From NCBI GenBank assembly GCA_030019255.1, contig JASEFK010000006.1, positions 26,464 to 90,463 of the forward strand: a DNA stretch of 64,000 bases. The letters are read 5' to 3'. This stretch comes from Actinomycetota bacterium (lineage in GTDB: Bacteria > Actinomycetota > Geothermincolia > Geothermincolales > RBG-13-55-18). A program made the translations under genes and the position numbers. Shown in pieces: positions 56,181 through 63,543 of the stretch (position 1 is its first letter; each line of letters opens with the position of its first letter). Under the pieces are notes generated by a model. The model searched no databases. It saw nothing but the letters and a program-made list of their open reading frames with translations, and had not been told where the DNA came from.

Positions 56181-57176
56181 ATGAGCAACGATAGGATTTT
56201 GGAGCGCAAGGCCCTGGCCATCCTGGAAATACTCCAGGAGGCCGGGAAACCCCTTGGAGCACGGGCCATCGCCCGGGAACTCTCCCGGAAGGGCCTGGAC
56301 CTCAACGAGAGGACGGTTCGCTACCACCTGCTCCATCTTGACGCAAGAGGATTCACCCGCCTGGTGGGGAGAAGCGGCAGGGTGCTCACCGAAAAGGGGG
56401 CACAGGAAGTGGAGGGCGCCCTGGCTGTGGAACGCCTGGGCTTCGTCAACGCGCGCATAGACGACCTCGCCTGGCGGGCCGATTACGACCCCCGAACCGG
56501 GAAGGGCCGCGTGGTGGTGAACCTCACCTTCCTCCCCCGGGAACAGGAACCGAGGGCCGTGGAGGCCATGCGCAGCGCTTTCCGTGCCGGCTTCTGTCTA
56601 TCCGACCTGGTGCTGCGAGCCGGGCCTGGGGAACGCATCGGCCAGGTGGAGGTGCCTTCCGGCATGGTAGGTTGGGGCACCCTGTGCAGCGTAACCCTGA
56701 ACGCCATCTTTCTGCGCCACGGTATACCCGTGGAATCCAGTTTCGGAGGGCTTCTGGAGATCCAGGAGGGAAAACCCCGCCGCTTCACTGAGATCATCAG
56801 CTACTCCGGGTCCACCCTGGACCCCATCGAGATCTTTATCAAGGGAAAGATGACCGGCGTCCATGCCGCGGCGGAGACCGGGAACGGCAGGATTTGTGCC
56901 TCCTTCCGCCAGATACCGGCCAGTGCCCGCGGACGGGCTTCCGAGATACTGGAGGAGATGCGCTCCGTCCGCCTGGGAGGGCTGGTGGTGCTGGGCAAGC
57001 CGGGGCAGCCCTGTCTGGAGATACCCTGCGCCAAGGAACGGGTAGGCCTGGTGGTGGCGGGAGGACTCAACCCCCCTGCGGCGGCCGAAGAACTGGGGGT
57101 GGATACCTATTCCCGGGCCATGGCCGAGCTGGTGGACTACTCCCAGCTGGTGCCCTTCTCCACGGTCAGGCCCTGA
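56181..57176 (+). CDS. nrpR: NrpR-like nitrogen repressor (winged helix plus NrpR/DUF128 domain)
   Basis: The 331-residue protein has an N-terminal winged-helix domain (KALAILEILQEAGKPLGARAIARELSRKGLDLNERTVRYHLLHLDARG, about residues 11-60) followed by one NrpR/DUF128 domain from about 80 to 325. That domain has YNLTFLP-like strands, GTLCSVTLNAIFLRHGIP, DPIEIFIKGKMTGV and a repeated glycine-rich region. In methanogens NrpR binds 2-oxoglutarate and represses nif and glnA genes. Archaeal NrpR often has two DUF128 domains; this one has one. It is divergent from the glutamate synthase operon. The ribosome site is weak (ACGGAAAAAATTTACCTAA). Confidence 0.9.
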   Translation: MSNDRILERKALAILEILQEAGKPLGARAIARELSRKGLDLNERTVRYHLLHLDARGFTRLVGRSGRVLTEKGAQEVEGALAVERLGFVNARIDDLAWRADYDPRTGKGRVVVNLTFLPREQEPRAVEAMRSAFRAGFCLSDLVLRAGPGERIGQVEVPSGMVGWGTLCSVTLNAIFLRHGIPVESSFGGLLEIQEGKPRRFTEIISYSGSTLDPIEIFIKGKMTGVHAAAETGNGRICASFRQIPASARGRASEILEEMRSVRLGGLVVLGKPGQPCLEIPCAKERVGLVVAGGLNPPAAAEELGVDTYSRAMAELVDYSQLVPFSTVRP

Positions 57177-57496
57177 AGTGGCCGGACTGCGGGGCGCTTT
57201 GCCTCGTGGAGCGGGACTACACGACCTGCGCGGGGGGATCGCCGTTCTGGCAATTATTACCATGTCGCTATTTTCCCTCAGCCTGGACCTTTTCCGCCTG
57301 GCCGTGAACCGGGCCCACGAAACGGGAGCCCTCTCCAAGTACTGGGAAGATAACAAGGTTCGGGACCGCGCCCGGAAAGACAGGTATAATAAAGCCGGCA
57401 ACCATGTGGTGCGAAGGGGTCAGCAGGCTCTCCGTAAGCTTGTCGCGGCGACCCTTCGCGACGGGCGTGAGCACCCCGGGGATGGAAGGAGGTAAC
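57177..57496. other. 320-bp gap between nrpR and the ADC-like gene
   Basis: No convincing gene is seen; a frame at 57178-57495 gives a basic, poorly patterned peptide. TATAAT at 57385-57390 may be a -10 for the ADC-like gene. Confidence 0.4.
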
Positions 57497-58261
57497 ATGG
57501 AGGGGCTCTTCTTCGAGGACGTGGAGCAGAGGGAAGTGGAGATAACCGGCGGGTCCTGCGCCGTGCCGGTGCTCTACCGGGAGGTCTTCGCCGTGGCGGG
57601 CATTTTCCTGGCCCCCACCCTGAAACTCCGCGACCTTCTGCCCACCTCCAAGCTGGTTCCCGCGGAGGTGATGCCCGGAAAAGGGCTCCTGGCCATCATG
57701 GCCTTCGACTACCGGGACACCAGCATAGGCCCCTATCGGGAGCTGGGAATAGCCGTCCCGGCCCGTTACCGCCCCCGCCTTAACCCCATGCTCATCCCGC
57801 CCCTGCGCATGGCCGCCTCCCTATCCTTCGAGGCCTTCGTCTGGCAGCTCCCGGTGACCACGGATATAGCGCTGCACGCCGGGATCGACATCTGGGGTTA
57901 CCCCAAGTTCCTGGGGGAGATCGAGTTCGCGGAGGACGAGAAGACGGTAACCTGCACCCTCACGGAGCAGGGCCGACACATCCTCACCCTGGAGGTGAAG
58001 AAGTCGCTCCCCCGCATGAAAACCTACTTCGACATCAATACCTACACGGTGAAGGACCGGGAGCTCCTCTTCACCCCCATCCGGGGAGTCTCCACTTCCC
58101 TGGGCCGCAGCTTCCTCCCCGGAACCGCCCGCATCACCCTCGGCGAGCACGAACTCTCGAGGAAAATCCGCGAGATAGCGCCGGGGAAAAGCATCCACTC
58201 CCTCTACATCCCCCGCGCCCGGATGCTCCTTCCGGAAGCGGAGCAGCACCTCAGCCTCTAA
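57497..58261 (+). CDS. Acetoacetate decarboxylase-fold protein
   Basis: From the ATG at 57497, after AAGGAGGTAAC, the 254-residue protein has the ADC fold: SKLVPAEVMPGKGLLAIMAFDYRDTSIGPYRELGIAVP, and IDIWGYPKFLGEIEF with the candidate Schiff-base lysine K137. The neighbouring residue that usually is a second lysine (YPKK) is Phe here, which would raise doubt about a decarboxylase-type pKa shift. Other ADC-superfamily members are aldolase-dehydratases, so the reaction is open. It is convergent with the RuBisCO-like protein operon, separated by a REP-like element. Confidence 0.82.
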   Translation: MEGLFFEDVEQREVEITGGSCAVPVLYREVFAVAGIFLAPTLKLRDLLPTSKLVPAEVMPGKGLLAIMAFDYRDTSIGPYRELGIAVPARYRPRLNPMLIPPLRMAASLSFEAFVWQLPVTTDIALHAGIDIWGYPKFLGEIEFAEDEKTVTCTLTEQGRHILTLEVKKSLPRMKTYFDINTYTVKDRELLFTPIRGVSTSLGRSFLPGTARITLGEHELSRKIREIAPGKSIHSLYIPRARMLLPEAEQHLSL

Positions 58262-58330
58262 AGGGGTCAGGTCTTGAATTTTGATACCCCTGGGGGTATC
58301 CACAGACCGCCGACTGCCTGACTGACCCCT
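58262..58330. repeat. REP/MITE-like palindromic element between convergent genes
   Basis: AGGGGTCAG (58262-58270) and CTGACCCCT (58322-58330) are inverted ends of a 69-bp element starting AGGGGTCAGGTCTTGAAT. Inside it, GATACCCC-TG-GGGGTATC (58283-58300) forms a hairpin. It begins right after the ADC-like stop and its right end supplies part of the TAG stop of the RuBisCO-like gene. It resembles REP-type elements of RAYT transposases; no transposase is nearby. It may also act as a bidirectional terminator. Confidence 0.75.
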
Positions 58331-59672
58331 AATCGCCCAGGTGTTCGGTCTTGGCCTCGATGCCCGTATCCGCGGTGGTCTCCTTGAAGAAGCCCTCCCA
58401 GAGCCCCAGGGCCACGGCCAGCTCCTGGTGGTCCCTGGCATACTCGTGGAGGGGGATGCCCTGCATGGTGGCGTCGATGGCCTGCCGGAAGGCCCGCGCC
58501 CCCGCCGTAGGCCCCATGGGATGGGCGTGGATCCCCCCGCCGGACCCGATCATGATCTCCTTCCCGAGATCCGCCACGCAGGTGGGGACCATTTCCGGGG
58601 TGATGCCCCCGGAGGGCATGGGCATGGAGGGCTTGATGTTGTGCAGCGGGTAGTGCATGACGTCCGCCGTGTACACGAAGCGGTCCTTGAGGTAGGGGGC
58701 CTTCCCGTAGGGCGCCGGGAAGACGATGGCGTCCGCCCCCGCCAGGCGGGGAAGCTTGGCCAGGACCAGGTGGGAGGCGATGCCCGAGATGGGCGATTCG
58801 TACAGGGCCCCGGCGCAGTCCATGTGGGCCAGGATGGGCACGTTGATGTCCGGGTCCTCGGCCAGGGCCTGCAGGGCGGGCAGCCCCACCGCCAGGTAGT
58901 TGACCATGATGGCGTTGGCCCCGGCGTCCACGGCGCGCTTGGCCGTCTCGAACATCTTGGGGATGCTGTCCGAGACGTTGACCGTGTACAGCGTATGTTC
59001 ACCGGTCTCCTCGTAGACCCTCTTCTCCATGGCCATGTAGGCCCGGACGCGGTCCTCCACCCGGTTGAAAGCCATGTCCGCGATGAGTTCGTCGTCCTTG
59101 ATCACGTCGCAACCACCCAGGGCCGCCTCGTAGAAGAGCCTCTCCCCCACCTCGCAGGAATACCCCGTGCAGGGCTTGATCATGTTGTTGAGCAGGGGGC
59201 GCCTCTCCTTTATCCCCAGGACCTCGTAGATGCCGTCGATGCCGAACTTAGGCCCCTGGAAACCCTCGGTGTATTTCTTCGGGAAGTAGAGGTCCAGGAG
59301 CTTGATCTTTCCCCCCATGGAAATATTTCCCACCACGGCGGTGAGCAGCATGGGTATCTGGTGCTCGATGTTGCGGAAGGGGAAGGCGATCTGCACCACG
59401 TAAGTGCGCTCCTCCACCCCCTTGGGCACCTCGAACTCGTAGAAGGGCACCTCGTGGATGCCGATGACCTTGGCCACGTGCTTGGCCCTCACCTCTGGCG
59501 TCTCCCCGGGCACCGGCGTCCAGGTCCCCGTGGACTGCTCTATGGCCAGGAAGGGGGCCAGGTAGTACATGATGGCCTCCCGGGGCAGGGCGGCGTAGTA
59601 GGTGGCCACAATGAAGTCGTCGTAGTCGATTCCCTCCGGCAGGGCCTTGGGCTGGGCTTCGTAGTAGAGCAT
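58329..59672 (-). CDS. RuBisCO-like protein (form IV type)
   Basis: The 447-residue protein has the RuBisCO fold signatures. Residues aligned by eye to spinach numbering: E45 (E60, in EQSTGTW), N116 (N123), K166 (K175, in MIKPCTG), K192/D194/E195 (K201/D203/E204, in IKDDE) and H283 (H294). K324 (K334, in PYGK), S354 (S379) and the GSGGG near 376-380 (G403/G404) are also kept. Changes: C168 for K177, M284 for R295, and the H327 position is not His. The carbamylated lysine and Mg ligands are kept, so an enolase- or isomerase-like reaction, or a transcarboxylation, is more likely than CO2 fixation. It is the last gene after an FGGY kinase and a reductase. Confidence 0.95.
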   Translation of the reverse strand: MLYYEAQPKALPEGIDYDDFIVATYYAALPREAIMYYLAPFLAIEQSTGTWTPVPGETPEVRAKHVAKVIGIHEVPFYEFEVPKGVEERTYVVQIAFPFRNIEHQIPMLLTAVVGNISMGGKIKLLDLYFPKKYTEGFQGPKFGIDGIYEVLGIKERRPLLNNMIKPCTGYSCEVGERLFYEAALGGCDVIKDDELIADMAFNRVEDRVRAYMAMEKRVYEETGEHTLYTVNVSDSIPKMFETAKRAVDAGANAIMVNYLAVGLPALQALAEDPDINVPILAHMDCAGALYESPISGIASHLVLAKLPRLAGADAIVFPAPYGKAPYLKDRFVYTADVMHYPLHNIKPSMPMPSGGITPEMVPTCVADLGKEIMIGSGGGIHAHPMGPTAGARAFRQAIDATMQGIPLHEYARDHQELAVALGLWEGFFKETTADTGIEAKTEHLGD

Positions 59673-59684
59673 CTTCCTCCCTCC

Positions 59685-61247
59685 TTACACTGCTTCGCAG
59701 GCCTCTTCGGCCTGGTTCAGGCGTCGGCACAGTCCGCACAGGTTACCGTAGAGCCGGCGGAAGACCTGGTAGAGCTCGTCGTACTCCGTGCAGCAGCCGG
59801 GATCGGGCTCGAAGGTCCGGCGCACCCGCACCACCCTCTTCAGGTCGCGGTAACCGTTGTATTCCCCCAGGGCCACCGCCACCGCCAGGGCGCAGCCGAT
59901 GGCCCCCGCCTCCTGGGGGTCAGCCACCGCCTCGATGCTCCTGCGGGTCACGTCGGCCATGATCTGCATCCACACGTCGCTCCGCGCCCCTCCCCCGATG
60001 GCCCTGAGAGTGCGACAGGGGAAGCCGGCGCCGGCGACGGTGTCCACCAGCCAGCGGAAGTTGTAGGCCACCCCTTCGTAGATGGAGCGCAGGACGTGTT
60101 CCCGGCGGTGGTTGAGGGAGAGGTTGACGAAGGCGGAGCGGATGGTGGTGTCGGTTATGGGGGCCCGCTCCCCGAAGAGCCAGGGAGTGAAGAGCAGCCG
60201 TGCGGACCCCGGCTCCACCCCCTCCACCACCTCGTCAAGCACGGCGAAGATGGCCATCTCGTCCCCCCGGCGTTCCGCCTCCTTCCTCTCCTCGGCGGTG
60301 GCGAAATTGTCGGCGAACCACTTCAGGCAGGCCCCGGCGGTCTCCGTTTCCCCGATCATGAGGAACATCTCCGGGTCCGCCGAGGCCACGGACACGATGC
60401 CGTTCTTCCCCAGGTTCTTGGGTTTCCTCACCGAGACCACCAGCCACCCCGAGGTCCCCAGGTAGATGTGGGCATCCCCGTGTTCCAGGGCCCCGGAACC
60501 GGTGGCCGCGGCGGGCACGTCCCCCATGCCCCCTATCACCGGGGTGCCCGGCTGAAGGCCCATCTCCTCGGCCGCCTCGCGGGTGAGGAGCCCCACCACC
60601 TCCACCGAGCTCTTTATGTCCGGCATCTTTTCCAGGGGTATGCCCAGGATACGCGCGAACATCTGGTCCCATTCCCGGGTCTTGTTCTTCAGTATCCCGG
60701 TGACTCCCGCCCCGGTGTGGTCGATGATCATGTTGCCGGTGGCCCGGAAGACCAGGTAGCCGTTGACGTCCAGGACCTTGTGGGTGGCGGAGAACACCTC
60801 CGGCTCCTTCTCCTTTATCCACAGTATCTTGCAGATGACGTCCTTTCCCGAGGGCACCGCCCCGGCCACGGCCATGACCACCCGGGGGCCGCCGAATCTC
60901 CTCACCAGCCTGGCGGCCTGCTCGTCGGCCCGGCTGTCTATCCAGATGATGGCCGGGCGCAGGGGAACGCCCTTCTCGTCCACCGGAAGGACCCCCAGCA
61001 TCTGGGCGGCGAAGCCCATGCCCACCACCTGGCGGGGATTGACGCGGCTTTCCTTGAGGACCTTCCTGGTACTCCCAGTCACCGCCCTCCACCAGTCCCG
61101 GGGGTCCTGCTCCGCCCAGTGGGGCTGTGGGTAGGAGGTGGGATAGGGCTCGAAGCAGGAGGCCAGTATGTTCCCTCCCAGGTCGGTCAGCACCGCCTTG
61201 CTGCCGCCCGTCCCCACGTCATGGGAGATGATGAATTTCTCGCTCAT
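59685..61247 (-). CDS. FGGY-family carbohydrate kinase
   Basis: I chose the ATG at 61247 (MSEKFIISHDVGTGGSKAVL), after AGGTGGTGAGCGCGGA. The 520-residue protein has the sugar-kinase N-terminal domain DVGTGGSKAV, ILWIKEKEPEVFS and later IGGMGDVPAAATGSGALE, then the C-terminal LRAIGGGARSDVWMQIMADVTRRS with VADPQEAGAIGCALAVAVALG. This is the FGGY plan of xylulokinases and related kinases. It phosphorylates an unknown sugar, polyol or sugar acid. It ends 13 bp before the RuBisCO-like gene, so the two are almost certainly co-transcribed. Confidence 0.92.
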   Translation of the reverse strand: MSEKFIISHDVGTGGSKAVLTDLGGNILASCFEPYPTSYPQPHWAEQDPRDWWRAVTGSTRKVLKESRVNPRQVVGMGFAAQMLGVLPVDEKGVPLRPAIIWIDSRADEQAARLVRRFGGPRVVMAVAGAVPSGKDVICKILWIKEKEPEVFSATHKVLDVNGYLVFRATGNMIIDHTGAGVTGILKNKTREWDQMFARILGIPLEKMPDIKSSVEVVGLLTREAAEEMGLQPGTPVIGGMGDVPAAATGSGALEHGDAHIYLGTSGWLVVSVRKPKNLGKNGIVSVASADPEMFLMIGETETAGACLKWFADNFATAEERKEAERRGDEMAIFAVLDEVVEGVEPGSARLLFTPWLFGERAPITDTTIRSAFVNLSLNHRREHVLRSIYEGVAYNFRWLVDTVAGAGFPCRTLRAIGGGARSDVWMQIMADVTRRSIEAVADPQEAGAIGCALAVAVALGEYNGYRDLKRVVRVRRTFEPDPGCCTEYDELYQVFRRLYGNLCGLCRRLNQAEEACEAV

Positions 61248-61374
61248 TCCGCGCTCACCACCTGATTCGCTTGTATGCTCCACATGGATCCGTGCGGACC
61301 CATGTGGGCCGCCTTGCACGCTGGTTCATGCGGACCACGCCTCCGCTTCAGGCCCGGCCTTCCACACCGACCCC

Positions 61375-62595
61375 TCAGAACTTGAGGTCCAGGGTCTCCA
61401 CCCTGCCGTCCTTGTCCACGTGCTCTATATAGATCGGGGCACGGTCCCCCTTGCCGCTGGACTTGATGACCTCTCCGGCCAGCTTGATCATGTCCATGGG
61501 ATCCACGGCCGCCTCGGGCGGGAAGACCCCTTTCAGGGTGATCTTCCCCTGACCCATGACGATGGCTCCCAGGGCGGCGGGGATTCCCGTACCCTCGCCC
61601 ATCCCCATCCCACTGGAAGACATCTGGAAGATATAGGTATGAGGCTCGCCCTCCTTGCTCCCCTTGACCACGATCTTCAAGCAACCCCGCGGGGTGGTGA
61701 TGCCCGCCTCCTTGAGCAGGGCGTCGCGCTTGGAGAGCACGAAAGCCACGGCGAACTCGCGCGGTATCACCTTCTCCCCCTGCACCTCCAGGGGTTCGTC
61801 GGAGGTGAGTCCCAGGCGCACCATGTCCTTGATCAGTTCGGCGTAGGAGACGGGGATGACCAGCCCCAGGTTGGTGACCCTCTTCACACCCTTGATGTAT
61901 TTGGGGAGGGTGATGGTCTCGGGGTGCGGGTAGGCGTAGACGGGGTAGGTCCCCACGTCGCGGAAGTCGGTCACTTCCTCCAGGGCCTTCCCGCTCTCAT
62001 CGAAGAGGCGCACCGTTTTATACTCCCCGTCCAGGAACATGGGGATGTCTATTTCCATGGAATGGAAGCGGTGCTTGATCACCGCCGGACCCTCCACGGG
62101 CTCCCCGCCATGGGCGTGGTAGATGTCCACCGAGTCCACCTGGTCGAGCAGGTTCTGGGCGGTGAACTTCACCAGCAGGTTGGCCATCCCCGGGGAGCTT
62201 CCCATCCCCACCAGGGCGGAAACCCCCGCCGCCCTGGCCTCCTCGTCCATGGCCAGCATCTCCTGGGTGGCATCCATGTCGTCGCAGATATCCACGTAGT
62301 TTACGCCCACCTCGATGGCCGCCCGAAGGATGGGCGGACCGAAGCGGTAGAAGGGACCGATGCAGTTGAGTACCACGTCGGAGCCGGCCATGACCTCCTT
62401 GAGAGCCTGCGGATCGTCGGCATCCACGCCCACCGCGGAAACCCTGCCTCCTCCCAGCTCCGCTGCCAGCCGCCGCGCGGCCTCCCCTTCCCGGTCGGCG
62501 ATGACCAGCTCCGAGAAATAGTCGCCGGCGGCCAGCGCCCGCGCCGCGGTGCTCCCCACCGCTCCGCATCCGCCAAGAATGGTCAACCTGGACAT
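61375..62595 (-). CDS. Saccharopine dehydrogenase-like NAD(P)-dependent oxidoreductase
   Basis: The 406-residue protein begins MSRLTILGGCGAVGSTAARAL, a Rossmann motif, with VIADREGEAARRLAAEL at the second strand end. The middle has LNCIGPFYRFGPPILRAAIEVGVNYVDICDDMDAT, as in saccharopine dehydrogenase/LYS9-like proteins, and a C-terminal ALGAIVMGQGKITLKGVFPPEAAVDP. The true lysine-pathway function is unlikely in this context. It is the first metabolic gene of the operon, before the kinase, and probably oxidises or reduces the substrate. The overlap between the genes is 127 bp apart. Confidence 0.88.
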   Translation of the reverse strand: MSRLTILGGCGAVGSTAARALAAGDYFSELVIADREGEAARRLAAELGGGRVSAVGVDADDPQALKEVMAGSDVVLNCIGPFYRFGPPILRAAIEVGVNYVDICDDMDATQEMLAMDEEARAAGVSALVGMGSSPGMANLLVKFTAQNLLDQVDSVDIYHAHGGEPVEGPAVIKHRFHSMEIDIPMFLDGEYKTVRLFDESGKALEEVTDFRDVGTYPVYAYPHPETITLPKYIKGVKRVTNLGLVIPVSYAELIKDMVRLGLTSDEPLEVQGEKVIPREFAVAFVLSKRDALLKEAGITTPRGCLKIVVKGSKEGEPHTYIFQMSSSGMGMGEGTGIPAALGAIVMGQGKITLKGVFPPEAAVDPMDMIKLAGEVIKSSGKGDRAPIYIEHVDKDGRVETLDLKF

Positions 62596-62775
62596 CTCCT
62601 ACCTCCTTCTCGTGCTTCCCGCGTTTTCCGGTCGATGGTCGAAAATTCCTGCCACCAAGCCGGGTCTTGCAATCGTCTCCATCTCGCGCCTTACATGGTG
62701 TCCAATCGAGGCCCTGCAATCGAGGTTTTGGTCAAATCCCTCCCCGGGCGAAAGCCGTGCCGCTCCCCTCACGGA

Positions 62776-63543
62776 TCATGACCGCTTACCCTTCATCCTC
62801 GTGCTTTGCCTGGCCGCAATTTCCCTTTGTTCTCGCGCTACATCCCCGGACCGCGAACCGGCGATCTTCTTTCCCGCAGGCTCCTTCCGGGAAGGTTCCG
62901 CCGCCGCGTTCAACTCCTTCCCGGCCGTGAGGGCGGAAAGGAGATCCATGGCCATGCCCATGGCGCGGCGCAGGTCGAAGGACTTGGAGTCCTCCAGCCA
63001 CTGGATCTCCATGCCCTCCACCAGGCCCATGAGCATACAGGCCAGGTAATAGGGGTCGTAAGGGGGGAACACGCCCTCCGCCACGCCCTGGGCCATGATC
63101 TCCTGCAGCTTCTCCTTGGTGCGGTTGATGTAGGAGTAAAGACGGTCCACGTGCTCGGGCGAAAAGGTCTCCAGCTCCTCGGCGCGCATCTTCCAGGAGA
63201 GCTTGCAATAGTCGCGGTCCCGGTAATAGAGGTCGGTTATCTCCTCTCCCAGCCAGCGCAGCTTTTCCCAGGCGCTGCCCTCCCTCTCCGCCGCCCGTTC
63301 CACCAGGTCCAGGAACTCGCGGTGCATGTCCTCGATGAGGGAAAAATATAGGTCTTCCTTGGACTTCCAGTACCAGTAAAGGGTCCCCTTGCCGAACCCA
63401 GCCTCCAGGGCTATCTCGGACATGGTGGTGCGGTGATATCCCTTGGCGGAGAAGAACTTCAGGGCAGCCCGCTTGAAAGCCTGCTCCCGCTCGTCCTTCA
63501 CCGGGTTTTTCCTGAGACCCAGCGTCCTGGCTTTCCCAGCCAT
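62776..63543 (-). CDS. TetR-family regulator of the RuBisCO-like operon
   Basis: The 255-residue protein has the TetR DNA-binding domain at residues 15-65: EREQAFKRAALKFFSAKGYHRTTMSEIALEAGFGKGTLYWYWKSKEDLY. The ligand domain follows, with DYCKLSWKMRAEELETFSPEH. A 45-residue basic tail is unusual. It lies upstream of the reductase, on the same strand, so it is the likely regulator of that operon. A palindromic site AGACCAACCGGTCAGTCT at its own promoter fits autoregulation. An inducing ligand is unknown. Confidence 0.92.
   Translation of the reverse strand: MAGKARTLGLRKNPVKDEREQAFKRAALKFFSAKGYHRTTMSEIALEAGFGKGTLYWYWKSKEDLYFSLIEDMHREFLDLVERAAEREGSAWEKLRWLGEEITDLYYRDRDYCKLSWKMRAEELETFSPEHVDRLYSYINRTKEKLQEIMAQGVAEGVFPPYDPYYLACMLMGLVEGMEIQWLEDSKSFDLRRAMGMAMDLLSALTAGKELNAAAEPSRKEPAGKKIAGSRSGDVAREQREIAARQSTRMKGKRS

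What the first reader, a model, noticed from the sequence alone, without database searches (positions are those of the whole stretch)
58329..63543. RuBisCO-like protein operon with FGGY kinase, saccharopine-dehydrogenase-like reductase and TetR: a candidate unknown pathway
Four same-strand genes in the order TetR, reductase, kinase, RuBisCO-like protein are packed with short gaps (13 bp between kinase and RuBisCO-like gene). Known RuBisCO-like pathways serve methionine salvage or apionate-type sugar-acid breakdown. I do not know this FGGY plus saccharopine-dehydrogenase-like combination from either. The order suggests oxidation or reduction of a polyol or sugar acid, phosphorylation, then enolisation, isomerisation or C-C cleavage. 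The convergent ADC-fold protein could add a further carbonyl step.
Basis: partly seen in the sequence, partly recalled or inferred. Interest (0 to 1): 0.85.

Follow-up and report, generated by a model that had tools for sequence, protein, structure and literature searches.

The report
Unassigned RuBisCO-like operon handling amines
Next to each other in a hot-spring actinobacterium, and in many other oxygen-avoiding bacteria and archaea, sit a RuBisCO relative that has lost part of its substrate pocket, a sugar-type kinase and an enzyme that probably strips an amino group, so they most likely form a small unrecognised pathway rather than CO2 fixation or the known methionine recycling.

Summary
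In detail: TetR, saccharopine-dehydrogenase-like (SDH), FGGY kinase and RuBisCO-like protein (RLP) genes are real, same-strand and closely packed. The RLP is the only RuBisCO-fold gene in a 2.9 Mb genome close to Candidatus Solincola. It falls in a well-supported clade, found in more than ten bacterial and archaeal phyla, that is separate from MtnW, OiaX/acid-sugar RLPs, form IV-Photo and forms I/III. Sampled members keep the metal/carbamate lysine set and the C1-phosphate site, but the C5-phosphate site is replaced by apolar residues (K177C, R295M/L, H327V), and the catalytic base recalled for MtnW is absent. FGGY and RLP travel together. The third gene is either SDH or a class III PLP aminotransferase. 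Among 44 informative loci 22 have SDH, 16 the aminotransferase, none both, and the two swap at least eight times on the RLP tree. The SDH model resembles C-N oxidoreductases. Best model: deaminate a hydroxylated amine, phosphorylate, then RLP enolises or isomerises a 2-keto-1-phosphate with an apolar tail. The substrate is unknown. The convergent ADC-fold gene is probably unrelated.

The parts
62776..63543 (-). TetR-family regulator, first gene of the unit; found with the operon only in the window's order
   Evidence: Pfam PF00440 2.1e-17; best NCBIfam hits are MtrR (67.8 bits) and Bacillus-type FadR (63.9), both far below cut-off; this TetR family occurs in 13 loci of the window's order
61375..62595 (-). 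Saccharopine-dehydrogenase-like oxidoreductase, proposed NAD-dependent amine-to-carbonyl step
   Evidence: PF03435 2.6e-23, PF16653; 26-sequence family alignment with many invariant positions; AF2 pLDDT 91.7; Foldseek top hits carboxyspermidine DH, L-lysine DH, saccharopine reductase
59685..61247 (-). FGGY-family kinase, nearest to xylulokinase but below its cut-off
   Evidence: PF00370/PF02782; TIGR01312 332 of 380 bits; catalytic Asp kept, XylB Met-His signature is mostly Met-Leu in RLP-linked members
58329..59672 (-). RuBisCO-like protein (form IV) of an unassigned clade; metal site and C1-phosphate site kept, C5-phosphate site lost
   Evidence: PF00016 3e-47; below MtnW, form III and OiaX cut-offs; tree; active-site table; AF2 pLDDT 88.6; Foldseek nearest MtnW 2oej/2oem

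Best explanation
The operon encodes a three-step module. An amino group on a hydroxylated substrate is converted to a carbonyl, by the NAD-dependent SDH-like enzyme here and by a class III PLP aminotransferase in other lineages. A hydroxyl is phosphorylated by the FGGY kinase; the order of these two steps is open. The resulting 2-keto-1-phosphate, whose far end carries no phosphate or carboxylate and sits in an apolar pocket, is enolised by the RLP with Mg2+ and a carbamylated lysine, giving an isomer (carbonyl shift or epimerisation). In some lineages a class II aldolase could then cleave it. TetR would sense the substrate or an intermediate. SHOWN: gene families, clade, residue pattern, conserved linkage and the SDH/aminotransferase swap. 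INFERRED: direction, order, the chemistry of each step and the nature of the substrate. A 2-amino-1-alkanol or 2-amino-1,3-diol would fit but is not demonstrated.
For: Linkage: FGGY within 7 kb in 44 of 51 informative loci; of these SDH in 22, class III aminotransferase in 16, both in 0, neither in 6 (Fisher p 3.6e-7, not corrected for kinship; L030, one of the six, carries an SDH match by tblastn). The partner changes at least 8 times on starred branches of the RLP tree. Two distinct aminotransferase groups were recruited and keep the PLP lysine region. Among 30 relatives, the only two without the RLP (G018, G028) also lack both orthologues, and all 28 with it have at least one. The SDH model matches C-N oxidoreductases; an acidic residue ends strand 2, which favours NAD and so oxidation. 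RLP: E60, T65, W66, N123, K175, K201, D203, E204, H294, K334, G381, G403 and G404 equivalents are kept; K177C, R295M/L and H327V are replaced. Amino-acid permeases adjoin the cluster in L027 and L076, HisC in L055/L056, a class II aldolase in L004/L007, with an 82% orthologue elsewhere in this genome.
Against: In class relatives the SDH is paired with a second FGGY at another locus while aminotransferase-FGGY-RLP is separate, and eight genomes have both, so SDH and aminotransferase may serve different substrates. Class III folds also include racemases, mutases and lyases: AT-B is nearest to HemL and AT-A scores with racemases. Some clade members (Theionarchaeal and Hermodarchaeal loci) have no kinase or SDH nearby. 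The substrate is unknown and no activity was measured. The phosphate-site assignments rest on recalled spinach RuBisCO structures.
Confidence: 0.45

Rival explanations
1. The RLP is a 5-methylthioribulose-1-phosphate (or 5-deoxyribulose-1-phosphate) isomerase, like the R. rubrum RLP, fed by MtnA, possibly with a class II aldolase downstream. Kinase and SDH would be co-located for another reason.
For: MtnA is present in the window genome and all 20 relatives searched. The apolar far end of the RLP site would suit a methylthio or deoxy tail. A class II aldolase adjoins the operon in L004/L007. Known RLP activity of this kind: PMC5893883.
Against: MtnA lies on another contig. An FGGY kinase and SDH/aminotransferase are the conserved partners across phyla and have no place in that pathway. 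No R. rubrum-type (DeepYkr) reference could be placed in the tree, so this is not excluded.
Confidence: 0.2
2. A sugar-acid pathway analogous to apionate or tetronate degradation: the dehydrogenase oxidises an alcohol, the kinase makes a 3-oxo-acid phosphate and the RLP decarboxylates or isomerises it.
For: The analogous layout dehydrogenase + kinase + RLP exists with DUF1537 kinases. The RLP keeps E60 and K334 equivalents as those enzymes do.
Against: Acid-sugar RLPs keep R295 and H327; this clade has M/L and V there. It is a separate clade and scores 187 against OiaX's cut-off of 700. The SDH fold and the aminotransferase swap point to C-N chemistry.
Confidence: 0.12
3. The RLP is the DK-MTP-1-P enolase MtnW of aerobic methionine salvage.
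For: Closest solved structures and best NCBIfam hits are MtnW; about 37% identity.
Against: Below both MtnW cut-offs (363 of 409; 313.5 of 513.6). Separate clade. Asn replaces the MtnW base Lys98 (role of Lys98 recalled). No acireductone dioxygenase in the genome. No mtn gene among the scanned neighbours.
Confidence: 0.03
4. A carboxylating or decarboxylating enzyme: the retained E60/K334 pair and N123 would allow RuBisCO-type C-C chemistry on a monophosphorylated substrate.
For: E60, N123 and K334 equivalents, missing in MtnW, are present in every sampled clade member.
Against: K177, R295, H327 and H298 equivalents are replaced; it scores 272 of 497 bits against form III. Several archaeal hosts also carry a separate, much stronger RuBisCO match that groups with form III, so the RLP is not their RuBisCO.
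Confidence: 0.06
5. No single pathway: RLP-FGGY and SDH-FGGY are two separate modules sharing a kinase type, joined only by chance or common regulation in the window's family.
For: In class relatives SDH sits with its own FGGY away from RLP, and both modules coexist in eight genomes.
Against: SDH-FGGY-RLP or SDH-RLP units recur with different gene orders in Chloroflexota, Caldisericota, Acidobacteriota, Bathyarchaeota and Archaeoglobus.
Confidence: 0.14

Closest known systems
MtnW / YkrW, 2,3-diketo-5-methylthiopentyl-1-phosphate enolase
   Same: Fold (TM 0.83-0.84 to 2oej/2oem); about 37% identity; KDDE metal motif and C1-phosphate glycines; apolar far-end pocket
   Different: Separate clade; below family cut-offs; Asn instead of the Lys98 base; has E60 and K334 equivalents that MtnW lacks; FGGY and SDH/aminotransferase partners instead of Mtn genes
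R. rubrum / R. palustris RLP1 (IV-DeepYkr), MTRu-1-P 1,3-isomerase
   Same: Form IV RLP; plausible ketose-1-phosphate isomerisation with an apolar tail
   Different: No cupin methylsulfurylase or MtnA/MtnP among the identified neighbours; clade relation not testable here (no reference sequence held)
OiaX and DUF1537-linked acid-sugar RLPs
   Same: Layout oxidoreductase + kinase + RLP; E60 (Asp in OiaX), K175, K201 and K334 equivalents
   Different: They keep R295 (and H327 in the DUF1537 group) and use a four-carbon acid sugar kinase; separate clade
Carboxyspermidine / saccharopine / L-lysine dehydrogenases
   Same: Predicted fold of the SDH-like protein (Foldseek E 1e-29 to 4e-22)
   Different: About 20-23% identity; far below the carboxynorspermidine synthase cut-off (49.6 of 800); its own invariant motifs
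XylB xylulokinase
   Same: FGGY fold, catalytic Asp, W-x-D-x-R motif
   Different: 332 of 380 bits; Met-His signature is Met-Leu (signature in PMC3245297)

Membership tests
MtnW (DK-MTP-1-P enolase) | Score above curated equivalog cut-offs | tested here: not met
   NF007095 363 of 409 bits; TIGR03332 313.5 of 513.6
MtnW (DK-MTP-1-P enolase) | General base Lys98 (Geobacillus numbering; role recalled from Imker 2007, paper not held) | tested here: not met
   Window Asn116 in that column; Asn in every sampled clade member
MtnW (DK-MTP-1-P enolase) | Places inside the MtnW clade | tested here: not met
   MtnW rows form a 100* clade apart from the window clade
MtnW (DK-MTP-1-P enolase) | Downstream acireductone dioxygenase in the genome | tested here: not met
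   No PF03079 match in the own genome
OiaX / acid-sugar RLP | Equivalog score; R295/H327 kept; DUF1537 kinase neighbour | tested here: not met
   187 of 700 bits; Met and Val at those columns; the kinase is FGGY
IV-DeepYkr (R. rubrum RLP1) | Same clade as R. rubrum RLP1 | not testable with these tools
   No reference sequence could be obtained; Tabita 2007, Imker 2008 and Erb 2012 are not held
IV-DeepYkr (R. rubrum RLP1) | Turnover of MTRu-1-P | not tested
   Needs purified enzyme
Bona fide RuBisCO | All 19 active-site residues | tested here: not met
   15 of 19 kept; K177C, R295M, H298A, H327V
Form IV RLP (broad) | RuBisCO fold with substituted catalytic residues | tested here: met
   Pfam PF00016/PF02788; fold match; substitutions
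Xylulokinase XylB | Equivalog cut-off and Met-His signature | tested here: not met
   332 of 380 bits; Met-Leu
Saccharopine-dehydrogenase-like C-N oxidoreductases | Rossmann plus PF16653 C-terminal domain and matching fold | tested here: met
   PF03435 83 bits, PF16653 38.9 against cut-off 31; Foldseek
Saccharopine-dehydrogenase-like C-N oxidoreductases | Amine/imine redox activity | not tested
   Needs an assay

The most novel reading that the evidence does not exclude
A previously unrecognised pathway, shared by anaerobic bacteria and archaea of more than ten phyla, in which the amino group of a hydroxylated amine is removed, the product is phosphorylated by a dedicated FGGY kinase and a RuBisCO-like enzyme isomerises or cleaves the resulting 2-keto-1-phosphate. 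That would be a third metabolic setting for RLPs, beside sulfur salvage and acid-sugar breakdown.
Probability: 0.4. Interest if true: 0.8.

Novelty: new variant of a known kind. Interest (0 to 1): 0.6.

Why it matters
At least one survey assigns form IV RuBisCO genes in archaeal and other dark-matter MAGs to methionine salvage by default (PMC7495880). For this clade that assignment fails the tests made here. The clade spans many bacterial and archaeal phyla, including Asgard lineages, Archaeoglobus, Dehalococcoidia and Anaerolineae, and keeps more RuBisCO residues than MtnW does, so its reaction bears on how RuBisCO chemistry diversified. The SDH/aminotransferase swap turns 'unknown sugar pathway' into a testable statement about amine chemistry with three small soluble enzymes, some from thermophiles.

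Tried and rejected
MtnW membership: rejected. OiaX/acid-sugar membership: rejected. Role of the ADC-fold gene: rejected as part of the unit, since it travels with NrpR and lies 3-6 kb away in relatives. Enrichment of beta-oxidation genes near the RLP (acyl-CoA dehydrogenases in 8 loci): set aside as roughly what a rough estimate gives for these genomes. Corrinoid/URO-D/DUF1638 genes near the second SDH-FGGY module: noted, not used. Sphingoid-base and Amadori-compound degradation were considered as substrates; nothing decisive. The sign test is tautological because the labels were defined as exclusive, so only the count of partner changes is used. Literature: nine searches and several readings found no paper describing this gene set; PMC7325909 treats an actinobacterial RLP with a different neighbourhood.
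Full report
OBSERVATION. The four genes exist as described: TetR 62776-63543, SDH-like 61375-62595, FGGY kinase 59685-61247 and RLP 58329-59672, all on the minus strand, with gaps of 180, 127 and 12 bp. The window lies in a 2.93 Mb genome (98.8% complete), which holds no other RuBisCO-fold gene. Its closest hits are Candidatus Solincola and other Geothermincolaceae-type Actinomycetota.

CONSERVATION. A protein-pattern scan of one genome per species found 198 relatives and kept the best 80, at 54-97% identity. They come from Actinomycetota, Chloroflexota, Caldisericota/Cryosericota, Acidobacteriota, Bacillota, Archaeoglobus, Methanolliviera, Theionarchaea, Bathyarchaeota, Baldrarchaeota, Hermod-, Loki- and Helarchaeota. 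The FGGY kinase adjoins the RLP in most of them, with different orders: TetR>SDH>FGGY>RLP, FGGY>RLP>SDH, RLP>SDH>FGGY, SDH>FGGY>RLP, SDH>RLP>FGGY and SDH>RLP. Reshuffled order with a retained gene set is strong evidence of functional linkage.

PARTNER SWAP. Where SDH is missing, a class III PLP aminotransferase usually takes its place. One orthologous group (AT-A, 47-93% identity) covers Anaerolineae/Thermoflexia, Baldrarchaeota, Scotarchaeum and a Euryarchaeote, mostly in the order AT>FGGY>RLP. A second, HemL-like group (AT-B) covers Clostridia, Cryosericum, a Dehalococcoidian and a Lokiarchaeote. AT-B also sits beside FGGY-RLP in class relatives of the window. Of 44 informative loci with FGGY, 22 have SDH, 16 have the aminotransferase, none has both and 6 have neither (Fisher p 3.6e-7, not corrected for shared ancestry). 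One of the six, L030, does show an SDH match by tblastn that was missed as an ORF. The partner label changes at least eight times on starred branches of the RLP tree. In 30 relatives the only two lacking the RLP also lack both orthologues, and all 28 with it have SDH (16), AT-B (4) or both (8). In the genomes with both, SDH is at another locus with its own second FGGY, so the swap is not a strict either-or at genome level.

SDH CHEMISTRY. The AF2 model (pLDDT 91.7) matches, in order, carboxyspermidine dehydrogenases, L-lysine dehydrogenase and saccharopine reductases; in general knowledge these are C-N oxidoreductases. Sequence is only about 20-23% identical and below the carboxynorspermidine synthase cut-off, so this is a fold-level inference. 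An acidic residue at the end of strand 2 favours NAD and hence oxidation; that is inference.

KINASE. FGGY, below every NCBIfam equivalog cut-off, nearest XylB (332 of 380 bits). The catalytic Asp is kept, but the Met-His pair shared by XylB-I, AraB-III and GntK (PMC3245297) is mostly Met-Leu in RLP-linked members, so the substrate is probably not D-xylulose or gluconate.

RLP SITE. With spinach numbering mapped through a form I sequence, the clade keeps E60, T65, W66, N123, K175, K201, D203, E204, H294, K334, G381, G403 and G404 in all sampled core members (the one divergent Syntrophaceae row, L071, has Phe for W66), and S379 in most. It replaces K177 by Cys, R295 by Met (Leu in the Clostridial sister), H298 by Ala/Ser/Thr and H327 by Val. 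From general knowledge of RuBisCO structures, the C1-phosphate site and the metal/carbamate site are kept and the C5-phosphate site is lost to apolar residues. MtnW also lost the C5 site but lacks E60, N123 and K334; its base Lys98 (recalled) is the N123 column. Acid-sugar RLPs keep R295 and H327.

PHYLOGENY. The window clade (98*) is sister to Clostridial RLPs that sit with GlpP, PEP-hydrolase-like, ComB-like and UPF0261 genes (93), and separate from MtnW (100*), from acid-sugar/OiaX/IV-Photo RLPs, and from forms I and III. Several archaeal hosts carry this RLP plus a second RuBisCO that groups with form III. No R. rubrum-type reference could be included; this is the main gap.

OTHER NEIGHBOURS. 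An amino-acid permease adjoins the cluster in a Dehalococcoidian and a Euryarchaeote, HisC in a Baldrarchaeota locus and its near copy, and a class II aldolase upstream of TetR in L004/L007, whose 82% orthologue lies elsewhere in the window genome. An amino-acid permease and a transaminase acting on a 2-amino-alkyl phosphate agree with amine chemistry but are few. Most flanking genes scanned look like housekeeping or unrelated genes, so the module is small.

MECHANISM AND RIVALS. Best model: amine to carbonyl, phosphorylation, RLP enolisation/isomerisation of a 2-keto-1-phosphate with an apolar tail (0.45). The main rival is a methylthio- or deoxy-pentulose phosphate isomerase (0.2; MtnA is present). 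Two unrelated modules 0.14; sugar-acid pathway 0.12; C-C chemistry 0.06; MtnW 0.03.

VERDICT. A real, widely conserved, unassigned RLP system. No searched paper describes the gene set, but most subscription journals were not searchable, so prior notice cannot be excluded.

Noticed in passing
window 57404-58261 (+): ADC-fold (acetoacetate decarboxylase-like) protein convergent with the RLP; in relatives it stays with NrpR and an ABC transporter and lies several kb from the RLP.
   Followed up: partly
window 56181-57176 (+): NrpR-type regulator (PF01995 plus HTH_12), best known as the nitrogen regulator of methanogenic archaea, here in an actinobacterium; conserved in relatives L002, L003 and L005-L007, next to glutamate-synthase-like genes.
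   Followed up: no
L070, L073, L075, L079, L081; also L146, L147: Sister RLP groups sit with PEP-hydrolase-like TIM barrels, UPF0261 (Tm-1-like) and, in the Clostridia, a ComB-like phosphatase and a GlpP antiterminator: probably a second unassigned RLP pathway.
   Followed up: partly
L187-L194: Second SDH-FGGY modules without RLP in class relatives, some beside URO-D methyltransferases, B12-binding proteins and DUF1638, one preceded by a D-aminoacylase-like amidohydrolase.
   Followed up: partly
L116-L121 against L063, L077, L057, L055, L069, L068: Several archaeal genomes carry both this RLP and a separate RuBisCO that groups with form III; the Baldrarchaeota copy (L119) branches at the base of the form I/III group.
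   Followed up: no
L063:7806-11243 and L065: In Methanolliviera the SDH-RLP pair is followed by a GlpA-like gene, a second flavin oxidoreductase-like gene and a small third gene, hinting at glycerol-phosphate-type redox metabolism beside the RLP.
   Followed up: no
window 62776-63543; L052, L054, L071: TetR regulators of different families sit beside the RLP module in unrelated lineages.
   Followed up: no
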